DNA of 64,000 bases from a virus. The stretch covers positions 24,500 through 88,499 of IMG/VR virus record IMGVR_UViG_3300020469_002640. One strand, 5' to 3'. Below are positions 2,069 through 51,918 of this stretch, one piece after another (the stretch's first letter is position 1; each line of letters opens with the position of its first letter). The notes below the pieces were generated by a model. It made no database searches. It was not told where the DNA came from and was given only the letters and a program-made list of their open reading frames with translations. A program made the translations under genes and the position numbers.

Positions 2069-5000
2069 CTAAACTGATGCCGAATGACTGTATCGACGAA
2101 CAGCTAGTATTCTGTTAGGATCAAATGTAGCTTCAGTAACTCCTCCACCACCTTTGCTTCCTTGATTACCACCAAGCACTATAATATTTCCATTTTCATC
2201 TGTACCTGCATAGAATCCTACATGACCTGTGTTAGCCTTATCTGAACGCTCTCTAGCTGATGTCATGTCATCATATTTTCCTTTTGGATCTCTCCACATA
2301 ACAACAACATCCCCAATTTGATAATCATCTGCAGCAACTGGTACACTATTTTTATCATTTGCAAAACTTCTAGCAGATGCAGTGCCTGCATGCTCATATC
2401 CATTCATACCAAGAACAGATGCTGTAAAACCTGCACACCAAGCAGTTTTATAAGGATTATCTATTTTAGCTGTTCCTGCATAGTTATTAATAATTTCAGT
2501 AAGTAATCCTGTATGATCGGTTTCATTTTTACCTAAAAATGCTTTTGCTAATGTCATATTATCGTTACTAGCTAAAATTTCTTGAGCTGTATCAGAATTA
2601 GTGCCTGTGGCAGTTTGAATAACTTGTGCAGCATTATCAGCGTTTCCAGGATTATTATTTGACTGGGTATTAACTTGATTACTATTTAAAACTTTTCCGC
2701 TTTTCATATAATCTTCAATCGCCTGCTGCTGTTCTTCAGGGCTTAAAGCTCTTCCTAATACACCTGATCCTCCATCAATAGCATTTGCCATTAATATTGT
2801 TGCATCAAACGCTTTTTTATCTCTGTTAGCAGTTACAAGATTAGCAGCTGCAGTTTCTACTGCACCTATTTTATTAGCTTGTTGATCTGCTTGCATCTGT
2901 ACGTTAAACTTGTTAGCATCTTGCTTCAATTGTTTTACTGATAACTCATTACCTACATTTATAGTATCAGCTTTCATACCTAACTCAGCTTGCATATTAT
3001 CAATAGTAGTTCTAGATTTAACTTCTCTATCAGTTACACCAGCATTTGCATCCATCTTTCTTTCATATGCAGACATTAAGTTAATCATATCTGCAGGACC
3101 GCCTCCGCTAGTTTTAACAAATTGTACTACTTTTTGAAAATCGTTTTCATTTATAGCTCTCTCTCTGTCAAATTTTTGATATTTAAGTTTAGGAGTTTCT
3201 ACCGCAGTCACATCTCCTACTGCTTGCATTTGTGGAGTGTTAGCAGTATATGCAGCTATAGGCGCAATCATACTTGCAGCTAAAGCAAGTTTATCTGATT
3301 TTGCGTAAGGATTTATAATATCGCCGTAAGTAGTAGTATTTCCAGATGTATTAACGCCTTTACTTATTGTAGTATTATTCGAAGTATTAATGTTATTATT
3401 AACACCAAGTTCAGGATTATCAGAATCATATGACCCAATAACATCTACTGTATCACCTGTAAGAGGATTTATTACAGAGCCGTCTTCGTTAAAATCGCTC
3501 ATATTATACATATAAGGAGACTCTCCTGGCCCAAAGTAACTTGCACCAGTATCATAATATGTAAAATCTCCTGCTTGTCTAAAGTTTTTAGCAAAGTTTT
3601 CTTTTTCAGTTCCTGGACCTCTAACTGATTCAAGCATTGCTTCAGTAGTAGGTTTACTTCTATCTCTGTCTACAAATGCACTTAATCTATCTGAGTAAGA
3701 TTGGAGTAGTACAGGTGAATCCACAAGTGTATTGTCTTGTGGCATAGAAAGATTTTTAAAATTTCCCATCTGAGCATATCCTGCTACTTTAGAGTTTCGA
3801 CCTGCTGCCTTATCTTGTGCAGCTGCTAATGCGTCAATTTCACTTTGACTTCCACCTTCTTTTAACAACTTTTTATGAGCATCTGCAAACGAGTGTCCAC
3901 CATATCTTTTAGACCCATCTACATTTACATAATCAGAAAAGTAATAAGGCATTTCCATACCACCATGCTTTGCACTTGATACACCATCTTTAGTCTCTCC
4001 TCTTTCTACTTCTGAATCACCATCTATTATACCTCCTTGACTATGTCTATTGCCCATAAACTGAACAGCGTCTGATCCAGGTATAGGCATCATACTTCCA
4101 CCTTCAAGTTTCATACCTCCTTGTTTATAGCCTTTCTCATATTCAAATTTAGCATCTTCATTTGCATATTCAGTTCCCCACTTAGGAATAATAGGAGATA
4201 TAATTTTTCTCATTAAATTTCTAAAACCACTCTCAGTATTACCACGCTTTTCAAAACGTTTAGCATCTCTGTTATAGTTTTTTAAATATTTTTTTTCTTT
4301 ACCAGCTTCTGTTGCATCTACTAAACCTTGTTGAAAACGTCTTCTTTTGTCTTGCTCTCTCATCATTTGCTTATCATTTAAATAAGTAGCATGCGCTTCA
4401 GAACGGTATTTTATGCGATCTGGGATCTGGTCTGCAAACTGTGCCCCTCGTTGATCTAAAGGATTTATACCTAGCCTTTGCTCTCTAGGCAATACAGTTT
4501 CTTTAGTACCTCGCATGTAAGTTGTTTGATTTTCTACATCTGGGTTGTGCGGATTGTCTGCAAAAGTTCCTTTACTGTGAAGCTTAGTGCCTCCATATAG
4601 CCCTACGTTGTATCCAGGATTTTTTAAAGTATTATATTCATCTTCTGTTACATTAACATTTTCAAACGTAGATCCTAAATATCCAGAGCCGCCTCCAGAA
4701 TATGCATTACTTCTACCTACATTGCCTAATTTAAAATCTCCTTGCTTGTATTTCATACCGCCTTCTTTTACGCGAACACCATAACTACCTTCTCCAGTAC
4801 TCATTGTATTACCCATATCTGTAGTAGTACTTCCTATTCTTTCAAGCTCTTTTCTTGTTTCGTCTCTATTCATAGCAGTAAGCTCGTCGCCTATAAGAGT
4901 AGTTTGCAATCTATCTTCTTTTCTAGCTTTACCTCTTCCTAAAACACTTTTTACTATATCTACACCAGCAGATAAATCTCCAGATAATAGCCTACCTGCA

Positions 5001-5384: not shown

Positions 5385-8300
5385 TTATCTTATGTATTTG
5401 CGCATTCCGGCATTGAAGGAATACAAATTTACAAAATTTTGATTTAAATTATTAAATGTTAGACGAATACCTAAATAGGTGTCAGCAAATTTTCTTTGCA
5501 AGTTCCACGGTTTAGCAGGATCAATATACATATTATGTGTATTTATTCCATACGCACCATTAACTTGCCAAGTAGCTTCAAACATATCATGCACATCCTG
5601 GTTACCTACCCAATCTACTGCCTGAGAAGTTGTAGTAAGAGAATCCCATTCTAATTGAGTATCAGCATTTGATTCTGGAAAACCAGAAGTTAATACTCCT
5701 GCAGGTGCATATGCTGTAGGAGTCATTGCAAAAGTTTCATTAGTTGGATTGCTATAAGAAGCACTTTGAAAATGTGTGGTATATAAAGCAGCTTTATCTC
5801 TAAATTTATTTATTTGCCATTTGTGTGCTATTTTTCTAACATTTTCTAAATAAGCAATTTCAGTTTTTCCTGAATGCTGAGTACTATTATATACAAAGAA
5901 AGATGTAAACCCGTCTTTATCTAATCTTTTGTACCTAACATCTCTTAAATTTCCAACTCCATACTCATCTGAAGCTCTATCAAACACTTCTGTTTCATAT
6001 GATATATTTGAAAATATTTTTGATACATCTCTTTGTTTTGGACTATTAATAACAGCCTCTACTTCAAAAGGATATGTAAATGCTTCTACATTTAATATTT
6101 TATTTATAGGATACATCAATGAATTTTCTGTTCTTGGAGCGCAAAGATAAAAAGCTCCAGGTGTGTATACAGAATTGTGAGACCACAATCTCCAAGAATG
6201 CATATTATGAACACCATTCCAACCTGTAGCTCCGTTTCCTGTCCAACCATCAGTTAAAAACACAAGCTCTCCGCTTTCTCCAGCTAGCATACTAGCACCT
6301 TCAACTAAAGAATAGTTATGAGTAGTACGCTCCCAAAAAGGATTAGGAAGCTCTTCCCAATTAAAGAAACTACAAAGTCCTGAAAATTCTCCTGAACCAC
6401 TTTTATACGTGTATAAATGAGGTAAGTAATCATGAAAAGATCCCCACACATTTTGCTCTGGATAAAAAGAAATTGTCCATCCTACTCTAGCCCATAATTG
6501 TCTAGGCCGATCATCTTCGTCTGTTCTTGCTAACGGAGGTATTGATCTATCTGGCCTACCCTGTATAACATTGCTATCTTTAAAAGATTGTAACTTTACA
6601 CTTATGTCTATAGGAACTTCAATGTTTATAAAATCTTCTTCGTTTTTTACTGTAAAATCTAAAGTGTCAATTATCCTATCTGAAGTATACAATTTGTAAG
6701 AGTATTCAGGCTTATTACTAGAAGATATATCATTTAAACTTCCGTCAAAATTTTCTTCTGCTGTAAATGTTAACGTTTGGCTTTCAGTTCTCCACATTTT
6801 TTCTATCTTATATGTACCATTAGATACAACTCTTTCTACATACTCGCCTCCATAATGGACTTTAAGACTACCTGTAGTCATTCCAGATACTGTAAACTGT
6901 GTGATAATTTTTCTATTAGAAACAGTATTTAACTCCTGTCGTAAAGCATTTGACCCTGCGCCACTGTGTGTTATTTTATTATCTTTTATTTGCCATTTTG
7001 TATTGTCATACGCCCACGCATCAAATGCAACGTCTTTTATAGAAACAGACTGAACATATAAAGTATCTCCTCTATCAGCCTTTCCTCCAAAAATACTAAG
7101 TTTATATGACTCTCTATTTCCTGTTTTAAAGTTTACACCAGTTGTAGTATATACACTTTGATTAGTCACTACATGAAATATGTCATCTTCTCCTAAAGCT
7201 CCAGGTAAATTTATTCTAATACCTTTAGCACCTTTCCAAGTTATAATTAATATATAGTCTGTATAAGGTTCAAGAGAAACTTTATCTAAATAGAAAAAAG
7301 GATCATCTGGACCGTAATCCATTTGGAATGTACCAGATGATAATGCTCTAGAAGATGCGTCTTGTGCTATTTCATAGTAAAAATCTGCAGATGTATTTTG
7401 ACTACTAGAAAAATCTGTAGCATCAGAAAAGTCAGTTATAGGTAATAGTTCATTTCCATAACCAAAATCTCCATTTTCAACTTTTTCTACTCCAGGAAAA
7501 ACTTGTAACTCAAATATTTTTTCAGATGGATTATATACAATTTTACCTTCTCTATTACTTCTGCTTCTTGTTCTTCCATATGGTTCAAAAAAGTCTTTAC
7601 CTTCTAGTGTAGGCAACAAAGCTCTTTTTGTTAAAAGTATTCTTTGATTTCTTTCATCCCATCCACTTACAAAACCTACACCTAGTATAGGACTATCTGG
7701 CAGCCTATAGTTCCATTTATCAGAACTAAGATTTTCTTGGAACCAAGATTCCATTCCAAGCTTACTTATTTCAACAAGTTTTTGTCCTGCCATAAATATT
7801 TTATTATTTCTTTGATCAATAAAGAAATATCCATATTTAGTAATTAACGTTGAATACTGAGATTGTGTACCTCCATATCCTTCTTCTGTTTGTAAAAACT
7901 CATCAGGGTCTTGTGAAAATATATCTCCTGAACCTATAAATGCTTCTGACCCATCTTTCATAGTCATAGTTTGTTTACCTTTTGTAAGCAGCAAACTATC
8001 TTCCATGTGTATATATAAAAGATTATTAAACGCAGCTAGGTTCCATAACTCTCCTCTATTTTTAGGCATATCTTTGTAGTCGTTTGCTAAAAAATGTCTA
8101 AAGTTATCAGTAAGACTTCCAGGATCTGATTTTGTAGATCTTTGAACTCTAGTAGTAAAAACTGTAGGAGCAGCTATTAAATTTGGTAATGCAAACGCAG
8201 GTCGCGTATCATTTACTTTTGAATAATCTATGTTATACTTTATACTAGGCTGCGATGTTAAATCATAATATGTAGAAGGGTCGTAATGTTTTCCATCTCT

Positions 8301-48219: not shown

Positions 48220-48451
48220 CTTTAAATTTTATACGAGCTATACCATCTATTACAGCAATTTCAGACAGTTTAGATTGTCTATTAAACTCGTTCACATACT
48301 CTTCTATAGAACTACGAGTACACAAGAAACTTAAAAATACTTGCAACTCTTTAGCAGCTTTACGAGTAGAATCATCTAACTCTTTAGCATCTTTAGAAGC
48401 GTTTTTAAGTTTTTCGTAATCAGTTAAACTTATGGTAACAGTACCTTTCAT
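48206..48451 (-). CDS. Small helical protein (81 aa)
   Basis: MKGTVTISLTDYEKLKNASK, then a helical stretch ELDDSTRKAAKELQVFLSFL and a final VIDGIARIKFKDDKN. The first 15 residues resemble the strand-helix start of ribbon-helix-helix or small phage inhibitor proteins, but the fit is weak. Its start shares a base with the GroES-like stop (48451). It is translated in a coupled series. Unrecognised. Confidence 0.55.
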   Translation of the reverse strand: MKGTVTISLTDYEKLKNASKDAKELDDSTRKAAKELQVFLSFLCTRSSIEEYVNEFNRQSKLSEIAVIDGIARIKFKDDKN

Positions 48452-48714
48452 TACAAGATCCCTAAGATCTGCTGTTCCATTACCATTACATGTTCTGTTT
48501 CATCTATTTCTACCATAACGCCTTCTCCTCTAGGATCAATCATTACAGTGTCTCCTTTTTTAGCGAACATACAATTAGGACCTACGGCTAACACTTCTAA
48601 AATATTAGTCTTTAGTTTGTTTACTGTAGCGTCATCTAAAATAATTCCTGATTCTGTTTTTCTTTTAGCTGGATTAGGTAACAACACCCAATTTCCATTT
48701 GGTTTAAAGCTCAT
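48451..48714 (-). CDS. GroES-like co-chaperonin
   Basis: An 87-residue product from ATG 48714; an upstream extension in the same frame to 48858 would cross the promoter and is rejected. The sequence has the Cpn10 pattern: FKPNGNWVLLPNPAKRKTES, GIILDD, ILEVLAVGPNC, KKGDTVMIDPRG and EHVMVMEQQILGIL. Like T4 gp31 it would pair with host GroEL to fold a large virion protein, most likely the capsid protein. The mobile-loop region (PAKRKTESGIILDD) is present but shorter than in bacterial GroES. It is the first gene of the leftward block, 14 nt after the predicted start of transcription. Confidence 0.8.
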   Translation of the reverse strand: MSFKPNGNWVLLPNPAKRKTESGIILDDATVNKLKTNILEVLAVGPNCMFAKKGDTVMIDPRGEGVMVEIDETEHVMVMEQQILGIL

Positions 48715-48734
48715 CTTTTTAGTTTTTGTTTTCA

Positions 48735-48766: not shown

Positions 48767-49203
48767 ACTGTTAGAAAAAAATTTTTGAATTGGGTATAGG
48801 TTCCCCCTTGAGGTTTGATCTTTTCGATTGGAACTTTACGTTTAGCAGTGCTTCTCATATGAGACCCAAGGATAATAAAACTGGTGTTAATTCACCGCAC
48901 TTACCTGTGTGCATTTTATCCTAACTAACGCTATATCCTTTCTTTTAGAAGCTATTGGAGAAAACTCTATTCCTTATTTAGGAACTACAATCCAACGTCT
49001 GACCCTATACTGCCCTCTCGGTCCTCTAGGGTGATACACTTTTGTGTGCTTCTGTGGCAAAGTTAAAAATAAAATTTTAGGAAAAAAATTTTTTTGAGGA
49101 AATCTTTGAGCGCGTAGGGGTCTTCAGAAAAACACCCCGCCTTGTTTTGGGGTTTCGAGTCTCCCCCCAAAAGTGAGACACAGTCTAATTTAATTTCAAT
49201 CCT
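48767..49203. promoter_or_regulatory. Divergent intergenic control region
   Basis: A 437-nt gap between the two opposing gene blocks. It holds a second minus-strand -7 box TAACTTTG (49065-49058, no clear -33), a very AT-rich tract (49059-49108), an ACAC-TTTT-GTGT hairpin (49036-49047) and four competing G/C segments: GGGGT 49117-49121, ACCCC 49134-49138, GGGGT 49149-49153 and CCCCC 49163-49168. A TTTTGGGG/CCCCAAAA stem (49145-49172) lies just before the first rightward gene. The region could contain a promoter, an attenuator or an origin; no DnaA-box cluster was seen. Confidence 0.4.
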
Positions 49204-49413
49204 ATGGATATTAATGAATTTACCAAGAAAAAGCTTGATGTTACCAACACAACTGTCTTTGACAGCGGTTGGGTAAAAACTGAGAGAACTCAGAAAGCTT
49301 CTGGCTCTACCGAGCTAAAGAAGCAAGTACAATTGTTCGACGCTAATCAGGAAGGTATGCCTGATGAGCTTGCAACATGGTTGAAAGATGGTAAGGTTAC
49401 CATCAAACAGTAG
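49204..49413 (+). CDS. Small charged protein, first rightward gene (69 aa)
   Basis: MDINEFTKKKLDVTNTTVFD, then GWVKTERTQKASGSTELKKQ and a C-terminal MPDELATWLKDGKVTIKQ. It is mixed in charge, probably partly disordered in the middle. It has no recognised domain. It is isolated between the control region and its own terminator, so it is a single-gene unit, which often marks an early phage protein acting on the host. Homologues and role are unknown to me. Confidence 0.65.
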   Translation: MDINEFTKKKLDVTNTTVFDSGWVKTERTQKASGSTELKKQVQLFDANQEGMPDELATWLKDGKVTIKQ

Positions 49414-49434
49414 TCCCTTTGGGACTATTGTTTT
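49411..49434 (+). terminator. Rho-independent terminator
   Basis: A 7-bp stem (TAGTCCC at 49411-49417 with GGGACTA at 49421-49427, loop TTT) is followed by TTGTTTT. It overlaps the stop codon of the gene at 49204-49413. Confidence 0.75.
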
Positions 49435-49586
49435 AACATTGTACCTTATATATAGGGTGAGCGGTATGGGTGGGCAATCTCTAACACAAAGTGTGTTTGT
49501 TTGCACGCTTACCACTATCTATTCACCCTTTTATCGCACAATTTGACATTCAATAGATTAGATTCTATTGTATTATATAACACTAA
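49435..49586 (+). ncRNA. Structured non-coding stretch before the tRNA
   Basis: 152 nt with no ORF. It shows GGGTGA (49455-49460) paired with TCACCC (49523-49528), an inner hairpin AACACA-AAG-TGTGTT (49483-49497), and a CAATAGA/TCTATTG hairpin (49551-49570) that ends 17 nt before the tRNA. It may be a small RNA or a processed 5' leader of the tRNA transcript. This is a structural inference only. Confidence 0.4.
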
Positions 49587-49661
49587 TGCGCAATAGAGCA
49601 GTCAGGTCAGCTTGCTAAGATCATTTCTTGGAGGTCGTAGGTTCGAATCCTGCTTGCGCAA
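49587..49661 (+). tRNA. tRNA-Met (anticodon CAT)
   Basis: A full cloverleaf can be drawn. The acceptor TGCGCAA/TTGCGCA has 7 perfect pairs. The D-stem is GAGC/GCTT with GG in its loop, and the anticodon stem is CTAAG/CTTGG with loop ATCATTT. The variable loop is 5 nt, and the T-arm is GTAGG-TTCGAAT-CCTGC. The discriminator is A and CCA is not encoded. Position 37 is T, where a purine is usual. A CAT anticodon could also be tRNA-Ile modified by lysidine; the first pair is T-A, so initiator fMet type is not supported. It lies between structured RNA stretches. Confidence 0.85.
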
Positions 49662-49680
49662 CACAAACATAAGATGCACC

Positions 49681-49730
49681 GTAAATAGCTCACAAGGCTT
49701 AGGTGCTAATCTTGTGTTATTATTATTTAC
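49681..49730 (+). other. Nested stem element 5' of a small ORF
   Basis: GTAAAT (49681-49686) pairs with ATTTAC (49725-49730) and encloses CACAAG (49691-49696) paired with CTTGTG (49711-49716). It lies between the tRNA and the gene at 49748, and its 3' strand is part of the 18-nt leader repeat. Confidence 0.45.
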
Positions 49731-49737
49731 ATTAAAA
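49720..49737 (+). repeat. Leader repeat, copy 1
   Basis: The 18-nt sequence TTATTATTTACATTAAAA occurs here and again at 50586-50603. Each copy precedes a small gene that starts ATGGAAA, 11 and 14 nt later respectively. It could be a promoter element or a translation enhancer. Confidence 0.6.
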
Positions 49738-49747
49738 GACAAAACAA

Positions 49748-49996
49748 ATGGAAATGAAAAGACGTTTATTTGAAATACATCATAGAATTAAATTAAAGCT
49801 TGATGCAATCTGCCAAGACGCAGGTGATATGAATACAGAAGAGTTTATGAAAGTTTATGAAGCTCTTAAATATGACTCGTCTGATTCTACGGAATCTGAG
49901 TTAGACATTATAGAATTAAGAAATGCTAATAAGTTAGCACATGAACGTATTAAACAGCTTGAACAACAAGTTGCTAAATATGATTTCTTAGATTAA
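49748..49996 (+). CDS. Small helical protein (82 aa)
   Basis: MEMKRRLFEIHHRIKLKLDA, then ALKYDSSDSTESELDIIELR and a C-terminal coiled coil ERIKQLEQQVAKYDF. It is probably dimeric. It has no cysteine and no known domain. It is placed between two structured RNA regions, with the 18-nt leader repeat just upstream. It may be an RNA- or host-binding early protein; the context only suggests it. Confidence 0.65.
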   Translation: MEMKRRLFEIHHRIKLKLDAICQDAGDMNTEEFMKVYEALKYDSSDSTESELDIIELRNANKLAHERIKQLEQQVAKYDFLD

Positions 49997-50580
49997 TATA
50001 ATAGTAGTGAGTTAGGACTATGGCGTTGCCTTGAGCATTTGAGTCACATAGTTGGGTTCTCTGCAATAAATTATCAGCAATGATAGTTGCTACTATATTA
50101 TAATACCTATGTTGGGCTATCTCATGGCTATGAAGAGATGCGGAGACCAATGTAACATCAACCTGTTAGGTGATAGGTATTTTATAATCTAGTTCAAAAG
50201 GTCGGGAGTAATTTACCCTTAAATTAACCTAAAAAGTGGGAGGCTGTTAAACAGTACGCTCGTAGTCACTATAATTGTGGAACCACAACTAGATTTTATT
50301 ATAAAACAGAGAGGTTGTCATAGGGAAGGCTGCAGATACTTCGCCTCTAAAAAAGAGAGACTGTAAAGGTGACATTCAACTAAAAAGACAATAATAGTTG
50401 TTAGAATCCTTAACACCTGTGCATAGGTGTGTCCAGCTAAAAGGGCATAAGGGCCTTGGGGCTAGTGCACTATTCCCCTAAACCTATTTAAATGCTGAGT
50501 AGCATCTCTAAAGGTTAGCACAATTCTGTGTTACAGAACAATTGATGCCAGGCAACACCTAAGCATGTGTGATAAACTGC
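49994..50580 (+). ncRNA. Large structured non-coding RNA candidate (about 590 nt)
   Basis: There is no ORF of length. Stems are packed end to end. ATAGTAG/CTACTAT (50001-50096) encloses ACTATG/CATAGT and a TATCA-GCAA-TGATA tetraloop hairpin (50072-50085). AATACCTAT/ATAGGTATT (50102-50181) and AATCTAGTT/AACTAGATT (50186-50295) each close a domain; the second encloses a GGG..CCC hairpin and TTGTGG/CCACAA. Further stems are TGTCA/TGACA (50316-50374), CAACTA/TAGTTG (50377-50400), ACACCT/AGGTGT (50413-50430), GGGG/CCCC (50458-50478), AACCT/AGGTT around ATGCT-GAGT-AGCAT (50481-50516) and TTCTGT/ACAGAA (50524-50538). This density of long perfect stems with multi-branch closing helices resembles ornate phage RNAs such as the GOLLD or ROOL type, but no match to a named family is claimed. 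Confidence 0.6.
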
Positions 50581-50585
50581 TTTAT

Positions 50586-50603
50586 TTATTATTTACATTA
50601 AAA
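50586..50603 (+). repeat. Leader repeat, copy 2
   Basis: Identical over 18 nt to 49720-49737, 14 nt before the ATG of the gene at 50617. Confidence 0.6.
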
Positions 50604-50616
50604 AACAGAAAAAGAC

Positions 50617-50943
50617 ATGGAAAAAAGATCAGCATTAGACACATTAACTATCGTAGGCTTAGGTCGTAAGATGGATAAGATTAAGAAACTTGCTAACGGA
50701 ATAATTGATAACTCAATTCCAATTCAAGAGGAAGATGCAGAATTAGCATATTCAGGCATTCTTGATGATATGAATAATGAACAAGTAGATTACAATAATG
50801 GTTATGATGAAGGATATAAAGCAGCAATGCAAGATATACTTAACATTGTTGATCCACATAGACATAAACTGAAAGATAAAAAGAAAGTTTTAGACTTAGT
50901 AGATTTTAAAGAACATTTAAATAAACTTAAACAAAATAAATAG
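50617..50943 (+). CDS. Small unknown early protein (108 aa)
   Basis: MEKRSALDTLTIVGLGRKMD, a central acidic segment (EEDAELAYSGILDDMNNEQ), then NNGYDEGYKAAMQDILNIVD and a basic, lysine-rich end (FKEHLNKLKQNK). It is mostly helical. The internal YNNGYDEGYKAAMQ is a common phage linker motif without assigned function. It is followed after 2 nt (TAGTTATGG junction) by a small membrane protein. The leader repeat precedes it. Confidence 0.65.
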   Translation: MEKRSALDTLTIVGLGRKMDKIKKLANGIIDNSIPIQEEDAELAYSGILDDMNNEQVDYNNGYDEGYKAAMQDILNIVDPHRHKLKDKKKVLDLVDFKEHLNKLKQNK

Positions 50944-50945
50944 TT

Positions 50946-51131
50946 ATGGAACAGAGTGAACACGCAATAGAAATTGGTATTAAACACGTACTAGAATTTA
51001 TAGTCAATCTTAAACACATTGGTGATGGGGCAATTGGAATTGAGTTTTGGTTTGACTGGACAGCGTTACTATTCTTTATAGTGATTTACTTCTTTTGTAA
51101 ATCAGTTTATAAAATGTATAAAAGAATATAG
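50946..51131 (+). CDS. Small single-pass membrane protein (61 aa)
   Basis: A polar, helical N-terminus (MEQSEHAIEIGIKHVLEFIV) is followed by one strong transmembrane segment (WTALLFFIVIYFFCKSVY) and a short basic tail (KMYKRI). The positive-inside rule would put the C-terminus in the cytoplasm. Small early membrane proteins of phages often serve in superinfection immunity or host takeover; no evidence decides that here. Confidence 0.6.
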   Translation: MEQSEHAIEIGIKHVLEFIVNLKHIGDGAIGIEFWFDWTALLFFIVIYFFCKSVYKMYKRI

Positions 51132-51139
51132 CTGATAGT

Positions 51140-51262
51140 TATTAACAAGTTGACGGGCATGATTTGAGCTCTGTCTGTCAACTTGCATATGGTTGCAAAC
51201 AATTTAATAGCTATTGGCTATTCACATTTAAAAGGTTGCTAGTATACCTTCGAAACTAGCAT
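51140..51262 (+). ncRNA. Structured leader RNA
   Basis: Three stems lie in the 157-nt gap before the gene at 51289. CAAGTTGAC/GTCAACTTG has 9 bp (51146-51185). AATAGC-TATTG-GCTATT lies at 51206-51222. TGCTAGT/ACTAGCA (51238-51261) ends 27 nt before the ATG. It may control translation of the downstream gene, be a separate small RNA, or be part of the larger RNA set. Confidence 0.5.
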
Positions 51263-51288
51263 TAAATATTTAAAATCATGTAAAAGAC

Positions 51289-51918
51289 ATGGCACAACAA
51301 TTAAATTCAGGGAGCATAGAAGCTCTAAAACAAGGTGAAACTCTGCTTGTAGAAGCAAGAAAAGTAGCAAATGGCAAAATTCAAGTGGAATTTGCAGAAA
51401 TGTTAAACACTGGTGCAAGAGCAAAGAATGCCTTAACAGTGTTAAACAAATCAGATGATAGATTCTCTGGCGGCAAGCCTCGAAGAGCGTGGGTAACTGC
51501 AGAAGCAGCAGACGTTGGAGAGCTATTAGGCGTAGACTTAGGAGATACAGGTGAATGGTACGAAGCTCAACGTCGAGGTAAAACTTATGAGATTTTAGAT
51601 CTTAACATTCTAAATCCAGTGGATTTTGATGGTGAAAGATTTAGAGTTATTTGTGAGGAAACTTTGACTCCAAGTGAATATCATGCACAAGATCCTGAGC
51701 GTTATGCTAAGAAGAAAGGGAAAGATGGAGATCTTATCCTTCACAATGGATGCTATGTATTTAGTTACACAAATGTTGCTGTAACTAATGAGCCAACAGA
51801 TGATATGCACACGTGGCTAAAATCTGATGTAGCATCACCAACGTCTATAGGCGGAATTAAAGCTAATGTTACTGCTTCGAAAGTAGCAGCAGCAGAGCTT
51901 GATGAAGCTTTTATGTAG
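51289..51918 (+). CDS. Conserved phage protein, possible ssDNA-binding protein (209 aa)
   Basis: The sequence MAQQLNSGSIEALKQGETLL, KIQVEFAEMLNTGARAKNAL, RRAWVTAEAADVGELLGVDL and HNGCYVFSYTNVAVTNE is a conserved pattern in phages of marine Bacteroidota. A beta-rich core with many charged loops and an acidic, hydrophobic C-terminal tip (AAELDEAFM) resembles the tail of SSB proteins, which docks partners. The evidence is weak, and a second SSB candidate exists at 60297. It has its own structured leader and a 12-bp terminator, which suggests strong separate expression. Confidence 0.6.
   Translation: MAQQLNSGSIEALKQGETLLVEARKVANGKIQVEFAEMLNTGARAKNALTVLNKSDDRFSGGKPRRAWVTAEAADVGELLGVDLGDTGEWYEAQRRGKTYEILDLNILNPVDFDGERFRVICEETLTPSEYHAQDPERYAKKKGKDGDLILHNGCYVFSYTNVAVTNEPTDDMHTWLKSDVASPTSIGGIKANVTASKVAAAELDEAFM

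What the first reader, a model, noticed from the sequence alone, without database searches (positions are those of the whole stretch)
49994..50580. About 590-nt ornate RNA between small early genes, next to a tRNA
At least ten independent perfect stems of 5-9 bp are packed into one ORF-free stretch, with long-range closing helices (50102-50181; 50186-50295) and a GCAA tetraloop hairpin. Chance stems would not be so dense or nested. Large phage RNAs beside tRNAs (GOLLD, ROOL) are known elsewhere, but I cannot match this to either, so it may be a new class.
Basis: partly seen in the sequence, partly recalled or inferred. Interest (0 to 1): 0.82.

Follow-up and report, generated by a model that had tools for sequence, protein, structure and literature searches.

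The report
Shuffled array of phage small RNAs
The stretch is not one giant RNA but a row of at least five separate small folded RNA units (a sixth lies just upstream, behind a tRNA gene), which distantly related crAss-like phages appear to swap like cassettes at one spot in the genome where other such phages carry the giant GOLLD RNA or tRNA-like RNAs.

Summary
The ORF-free, stem-rich stretch is real, but "one 590-nt RNA" is the wrong unit. Comparison with about 110 related environmental loci divides 49994-50582 into five tandem modules, A, B, C, D, F (80-190 nt), most closed by a terminal helix; a sixth, I, follows the tRNA-Met. None matches Rfam, even at E<=5. Modules recur singly or in other orders in other crAss-like phages, and homology stops within a few nt of the helix ends. 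Module B is 97.6% identical in a contig whose DNA polymerase is only 47% identical in protein: horizontal exchange. Covariation is strong for I, moderate for D (including a kissing-loop pseudoknot), thin for A, B, C and F. Long closing helices are enriched across the hotspot (>=10 bp: 37 observed, 8.9 in shuffles) but not in coding DNA. Wobble changes (GU 29, AC 7) indicate RNA of the + strand. The same position holds GOLLD in eight environmental contigs; cultured Cellulophaga phage phi14:2 has a tmRNA and a related module in its early region. Folding energy is no better than shuffled, but the window's own tRNA fails that test too (p=0.07). Most likely these are co-transcribed, tRNA-punctuated small RNAs acting in trans; function is inferred, not shown.

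The parts
49543..49583 (+). Putative early promoter (TTGACA ... ATTATATAACACTA), about 4 nt upstream of the tRNA
   Evidence: The same ATTATATAAC motif precedes the array in L006, L008, L029, L039, L047, L072; TTGACA hexamer at 49543. Consensus only, no RNA data.
49587..49662 (+). tRNA-Met (CAT), first element of the inferred transcript
   Evidence: ARAGORN; Rfam RF00005 48.6 bits.
49661..49720 (+). Module I: about 57 nt, 10-bp closing helix, inner 5-bp stem, small hairpin
   Evidence: Relatives in L096, L098/L109, L107, L016; 9 of 18 pairs with changes on both sides, 94.4% of cells paired against 81.8+-2.3 in shuffles.
49748..49996 (+). Small gene, 82 aa, between the RNA modules
   Evidence: ORF; a similar protein is encoded just before module G in L102 and L106.
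49998..50103 (+). Module A: terminal helix AAUAGUAG/CUACUAU, GCAA hairpin, replaceable inner part
   Evidence: L026/L003 and L092. No covariation verdict: three sequences, closing helix identical.
50102..50182 (+). Module B: 9-bp closing helix, core CGGAGACCAAUGUAACAUCAACCUGUUAGGUG
   Evidence: 97.6% in L092 and 98.8% in L108, both ending within 3 nt of the helix ends; L072 keeps the core inside a different perfect 14-bp helix.
50184..50299 (+). Module C: 9-bp closing helix AAUCUAGUU/AACUAGAUU
   Evidence: L026 (one full copy and a partial one at the contig end) and L110. Covariation thin.
50303..50487 (+). Module D: about 185 nt with paired hairpins; proposed kissing pair of loops 50419-50424 and 50465-50470
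   Evidence: Seven distinct sequences; 98.7% of cells paired, six pairs with changes on both sides; one copy per genome and only at the hotspot.
50494..50582 (+). Module F: about 88 nt, hairpin UAGCACA/UGUGUUA and flanking stem GCAUC/GAUGC
   Evidence: L026, L098/L109, L099; one double change and wobble changes.
51146..51185 (+). Possible further unit: 9-bp helix CAAGTTGAC/GTCAACTTG in the next gap
   Evidence: Repeat search only; no homologue looked for.

Best explanation
The finding is part of an array of separate small structured RNAs at an early-region hotspot of environmental crAss-like phages. Shown by comparison: at least five tandem units (A, B, C, D, F), with a sixth (I) beside the tRNA, each inherited and exchanged as a self-contained unit; I and D have covarying structure; wobble changes place the RNA on the + strand. 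Inferred: a promoter just upstream of tRNA-Met makes one early transcript (tRNA, I, small gene, A-F, then replication genes); tRNAs and, in relatives, tRNA-like minihelices act as processing punctuation (an acceptor/T-arm helix is a minimal RNase P substrate, established knowledge), freeing small stable RNAs that act in trans during infection. The patchy, cassette-like content and exchange between distant phages fit a role where phage and host interact, such as countering or decoying host defence, better than a housekeeping role. Likelihood: array of separate small RNAs about 0.75; release by tRNA-processing enzymes about 0.5; counter-defence role about 0.3.
For: Modules recur singly and in other orders, with homology ending at helix ends. 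Near-identical modules in phages with diverged proteins: B 97.6% in L092 (polymerase 47%, terminase 34% aa); D 88% over 188 nt in L097 (54%, 29%). Covariation in I and D. GU 29 against AC 7 among pair changes of the rightward families. Closing helices >=10 bp 37 against 8.9+-2.2 in shuffles across the hotspot, no excess in coding DNA. tRNA, minihelix H, GOLLD or pistol ribozyme at the same spot in relatives. An 11-nt length difference inside D argues against coding.
Against: No expression data. Folding energy is not better than shuffled. Covariation for A, B, C and F rests on 3-4 sequences. No mini-tRNA separates A to F in the window itself, so how those units would be released from one another is unexplained. 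No terminators or internal promoters above chance. The counter-defence role is inference from variability only.
Confidence: 0.62

Rival explanations
1. One giant ornate RNA of about 590 nt: a GOLLD/ROOL-like class whose domains are shuffled in evolution but work as one molecule, perhaps assembling through kissing loops.
For: GOLLD sits at the same position in eight related contigs; D has a loop-loop pairing with a palindromic UGCA core, and kissing loops build GOLLD and ROOL cages (PMC12286853); no terminator lies inside the stretch.
Against: Units occur alone (B before a tRNA in L108, D in L016 and L097, G alone) and in different orders; no Rfam GOLLD or ROOL match at E<=5; no pairing between units is supported by covariation.
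Confidence: 0.14
2. Cis-acting leaders: each module is an untranslated regulatory element (riboswitch, attenuator or thermosensor) for a neighbouring early gene.
For: They lie between small early genes and upstream of the replication genes; no terminator separates them from those genes.
Against: Several units stand in tandem, and the same unit precedes different genes in different phages: B precedes a tRNA in L108 but unit A in L092; D precedes unit F here but minihelix H in L016 and L098. No Rfam riboswitch match.
Confidence: 0.12
3. DNA-level elements: inverted repeats used as recombination sites, protein-binding sites or a replication origin, at the point where gene direction and GC skew switch.
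For: GC skew changes sign near 49-50 kb; the units recombine; a DnaA-C-like protein is encoded nearby.
Against: Wobble changes are strand-specific (GU 29 against AC 7), which DNA cruciforms would not produce; D has a kissing pseudoknot; helices are mostly long-range with conserved single-stranded cores.
Confidence: 0.07
4. No functional structure: AT-rich intergenic DNA with chance stems.
For: Energy z-scores near zero.
Against: Conservation up to 98.8% across distant phages, covariation, excess of closing helices over shuffles and over coding DNA.
Confidence: 0.04

Closest known systems
GOLLD RNA (Rfam RF02032)
   Same: Phage-encoded structured RNA near tRNAs, function unknown; occupies the same genomic position in L005, L006, L007, L008, L011, L073, L087, L103. 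Kissing loops are used in GOLLD (PMC12286853).
   Different: No sequence or model match in the window or its 88.5-kb record; here several short, separately exchanged units instead of one long RNA with a conserved 3' domain.
ROOL RNA
   Same: Large phage RNA near tRNA islands, no known function (PMC12286853).
   Different: No Rfam match at E<=5; not one RNA.
Phage tRNA arrays with extra stable RNAs (for example T4 species 1 and 2 RNAs; recalled from memory, a lead only)
   Same: Small stable RNAs inferred to be made together with tRNAs from one transcript.
   Different: Here many unrelated families, exchanged between distant phages, and only one tRNA in the window.
tmRNA
   Same: Cellulophaga phage phi14:2 has a tmRNA in its early region (4031-4500; 46 bits against cut-off 47); minihelix H of the relatives has an acceptor, a UGGU segment and a T-arm, as a tmRNA's tRNA part does.
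   Different: Window modules A-F and I have no T-arm and no tag reading frame was found; ARAGORN finds no tmRNA in the window.

Membership tests
GOLLD (RF02032) | Match to the covariance model of the conserved 3' domain (416 positions, cut-off 150 bits) | tested here: not met
   No match in the window at gathering score or E<=5 around the finding, nor in the whole record; positive controls ring at 212-219 bits.
GOLLD (RF02032) | Phage locus near tRNA genes | tested here: met
   tRNA-Met 49587-49662; GOLLD at the syntenic spot in relatives.
GOLLD or ROOL | One long RNA forming a multimeric cage | not testable with these tools
   Needs RNA and cryo-EM; modular inheritance argues against one molecule.
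ROOL, OLE, HEARO | Match to the Rfam model | tested here: not met
   cmscan of 48850-51300 at E<=5 returned only the tRNA and two chance hits.
tRNA / tmRNA | Acceptor stem with T-arm (and tag frame for tmRNA) in modules A-F, I | tested here: not met
   Only the tRNA-Met is found; T-arm present in relatives' module H only.
Exchangeable small-RNA unit (description used here) | Homology ends at the closing helix and the unit occurs with other neighbours | tested here: met
   B, C, D, F; A in three sequences only.
Exchangeable small-RNA unit (description used here) | Covarying secondary structure | tested here: inconclusive
   Met for I; moderate for D; too few sequences for A, B, C, F.
Processed small RNAs | Discrete transcripts or processing ends in vivo | not testable with these tools
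   No RNA data held.

The most novel reading that the evidence does not exclude
Crassvirales carry a hypervariable RNA cassette locus: a library of dozens of unrelated small structured RNAs, exchanged between distantly related phages as self-contained units and released by tRNA-processing enzymes, that act in trans as RNA-based counter-defence or host-takeover effectors; GOLLD is one occupant of this locus.
Probability: 0.28. Interest if true: 0.9.

Novelty: new variant of a known kind. Interest (0 to 1): 0.72.

Why it matters
It yields several RNA families without any Rfam match at once and a genomic setting for GOLLD, whose function is unknown. In the held literature I found no account of such arrays in crAss-like phages; a Crassvirales review has no occurrence of 'noncoding', 'tmRNA' or 'intergenic'. 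Because a cultured phage and host, Cellulophaga phage phi14:2 on C. baltica #14, carries a tmRNA, an excess of closing helices and a module 84-86% identical to one beside GOLLD, expression and knockout of such an array can be tested in the laboratory.

Tried and rejected
Folding energy of the whole stretch and of modules, both strands: not informative. Rfam at gathering score and at E<=5: nothing but the tRNA and chance hits. DNA search of named phages with the array: only tRNA or short chance matches. Bacterial genomes with D and G patterns: none. The idea that D plus the following minihelix H is one degenerate tmRNA: H has its own 5' acceptor strand and D occurs without H in the window and L026; not pursued. 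Resemblances recalled from memory (F to SAM riboswitch motifs, G to twister): no Rfam support. A protein-alignment search for more hotspots gave only five loci. MAFFT misplaced the window's 5' end in the A alignment and set L072 off by one column in the B alignment, so neither was scored for covariation. The D model found no remote homologues beyond the seven known.

Full report
What the sequence is. The window is part of an 88.5-kb virus record. Terminase, portal and major head protein match phage families, the head protein matches crAss-like phages at about 27-34% identity, and the early side carries a DNA polymerase related to crAss-like DNA polymerase I, a DnaA-C-like protein, helicases, a Sak4-like protein and a primase. 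Structural genes run leftwards and replication genes rightwards from about 49 kb, where the GC skew changes sign. The finding lies at the start of the rightward side.

Checking the observation. Stem density is modestly above shuffles (1 of 60 shuffles reaches the observed base pairs at >=5 bp), but folding energy is not (z -0.24). The tRNA-Met in the same window reaches only p=0.07 in the same test, so the energy test cannot decide. I therefore turned to homologues.

Finding the modules. Loci were fetched through neighbouring proteins and DNA patterns. BLASTN, nhmmer and reading of the sequences show that the stretch is a mosaic: A (49998-50103), B (50102-50182), C (50184-50299), D (50303-50487) and F (50494-50582). 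A sixth module, I (49661-49720), directly follows the tRNA and came out of the de novo survey. The same modules recur elsewhere in different orders: L026 C-F-A-C-D; L092 G-B-A, then a gene, then D-H; L109 G, F, D, H, I; L108 B followed directly by a tRNA close to the window's own; L016 D-H, with I further upstream. The partial second C in L026 sits at a contig end and could reflect assembly.

Units and exchange. Homology stops at the helix ends: B's helix is 50102-50181, and its matches in L092 and L108 span 50100-50182 and 50099-50184. In L092 the polymerase (over 277 residues) is 47% and the terminase 34% identical in protein to the window's, yet B is 97.6% identical in DNA; in L097 (polymerase 54%, terminase 29%) D is 88% identical over 188 nt. 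For L092, L097, L099 and L109 the best nucleotide match to the whole window is a module. Recent horizontal exchange of the units explains this best.

Structure. Module I: five sequences, 9 of 18 pairs changed on both sides, 94.4% of cells paired against 81.8+-2.3% in shuffles and at most 52% in slid controls. Module D: seven sequences, 98.7% paired, six double-change pairs, and a proposed loop-loop pairing (AUGCAC with GUGCAU; in the window GUGCAU with GUGCAC) that holds in all seven, with one double-change pair and wobble changes. Two of D's helices never vary and so give no evidence, and one shuffle control (further pair types) is not exceeded. In B, the single divergent relative L072 carries the conserved core inside a completely different but perfect 14-bp closing helix. 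A, C and F have too few sequences for a verdict. Another family at the hotspot, not in the window (m4), has four double-change pairs with none broken, and its model found four further hits, all in hotspot gaps.

Generality. In 54.8 kb of non-redundant hotspot gaps, closing helices of >=10 bp spanning 45-150 nt number 37 against 8.9+-2.2 in shuffles, and >=12 bp 20 against 1.1; polymerase coding DNA of the same loci gives 5 against 7.1 and 0 against 0.5. One widespread family (G) contributes several of the longest, so the >=12 bp figure is inflated by relatedness. Pooled pair changes in the rightward families favour + strand RNA (GU 29, AC 7, leaving out the leader element at 48863-49110, which shows the opposite, AC 19 and GU 0).

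Companions at the same spot. Rfam GOLLD scores 193-226 bits, over its cut-off of 150, in L005, L006, L007, L008, L011, L073, L087 and L103; L073 adds a pistol ribozyme. GOLLD is absent from the window's record (positive control). Relatives carry module H, a 43-nt tRNA-like minihelix: 7-bp acceptor, 5-bp T-arm with UUCGAUU loop, a UGGU linker, no D or anticodon arm; it scores as a sub-cutoff tRNA, and its T-arm varies compensatorily (GCAGG/CCUGC, GUGAG/CUCAC). Cultured Cellulophaga phage phi14:2 has in its early region a tmRNA, nine closing helices against 4.25+-1.4 in shuffles, and a ~50-nt module 84-86% identical to one beside GOLLD in L005, L008 and L011, 82% in L006 and L007.

How it most likely works. 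A promoter motif (ATTATATAAC) found upstream of the array in several relatives probably starts an early transcript whose first element is a structured RNA: the tRNA here, G in L104 and L105, m4 in L072. The tRNA, or H in relatives, is a ready substrate for RNase P and would separate units, giving small stable RNAs. How A to F, which have no tRNA between them, would be separated is open. Their patchy, exchangeable content suggests they act in trans where phage and host interact. Processing and function are inference; no RNA data were available.

Comparison with the known. It sits in the setting of GOLLD and ROOL, which are also phage RNAs near tRNAs and of unknown function (PMC12286853), but it fails the model tests for both. 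It resembles phage tRNA arrays with extra stable RNAs. I found no published description of these modules in the held library, which lacks most subscription journals and preprints. I file it as a new variant of a known kind: phage small RNAs associated with tRNAs, here as exchangeable arrays of new families.

Noticed in passing
window 48863-49110, minus strand: A conserved noncoding element at the head of the leftward structural operon, present in about 38 loci (30 distinct sequences, 71-94% identical), with many compensatory pairs and strand-specific wobble changes and no Rfam match. Perhaps a leader or antitermination RNA for the late operon.
   Followed up: partly
L005, L006, L007, L008, L011, L073, L087, L103: Environmental crAss-like phages carry GOLLD RNA (193-226 bits) at the same early hotspot; L073 also has a pistol ribozyme at 5514-5580.
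   Followed up: partly
L104:1817-1865, L102:2761-2808, L106:12238-12286, L092:2213-2260, L098, L107, L110: A tRNA-like minihelix of 43 nt with acceptor and T-arm but no D or anticodon arm, ending ACTA, sometimes with an inserted arm; scores 22 bits as tRNA.
   Followed up: partly
L114 (Cellulophaga phage phi14:2, NC_021806) 2905-4601: A cultured Crassvirales phage has a divergent tmRNA (tag GSSVQKLAMVA), several closed helices and a module shared with GOLLD-bearing contigs, in a region where many tiny ORFs were withdrawn in 2020.
   Followed up: partly
L085:186-262, L086:7843-7920, L061:3247-3325, L071:324-396, L072:1936-2008, L063, L070, L077: Family m4 (AAAAGACTGATGAATCC..., about 77 nt), well supported by covariation, no Rfam match.
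   Followed up: partly
window 48451-48720, minus strand: A GroES-like co-chaperonin gene heads the structural operon; the listed ORF start at 48858 probably overruns the leader element.
   Followed up: no
window 51230-51262: Hairpin GCUAGU..ACUAGC directly before the 209-aa gene; the same sequence (GGTTGCTAGTATACCTTCGAAACTAGCA) lies at the same place in L108.
   Followed up: no
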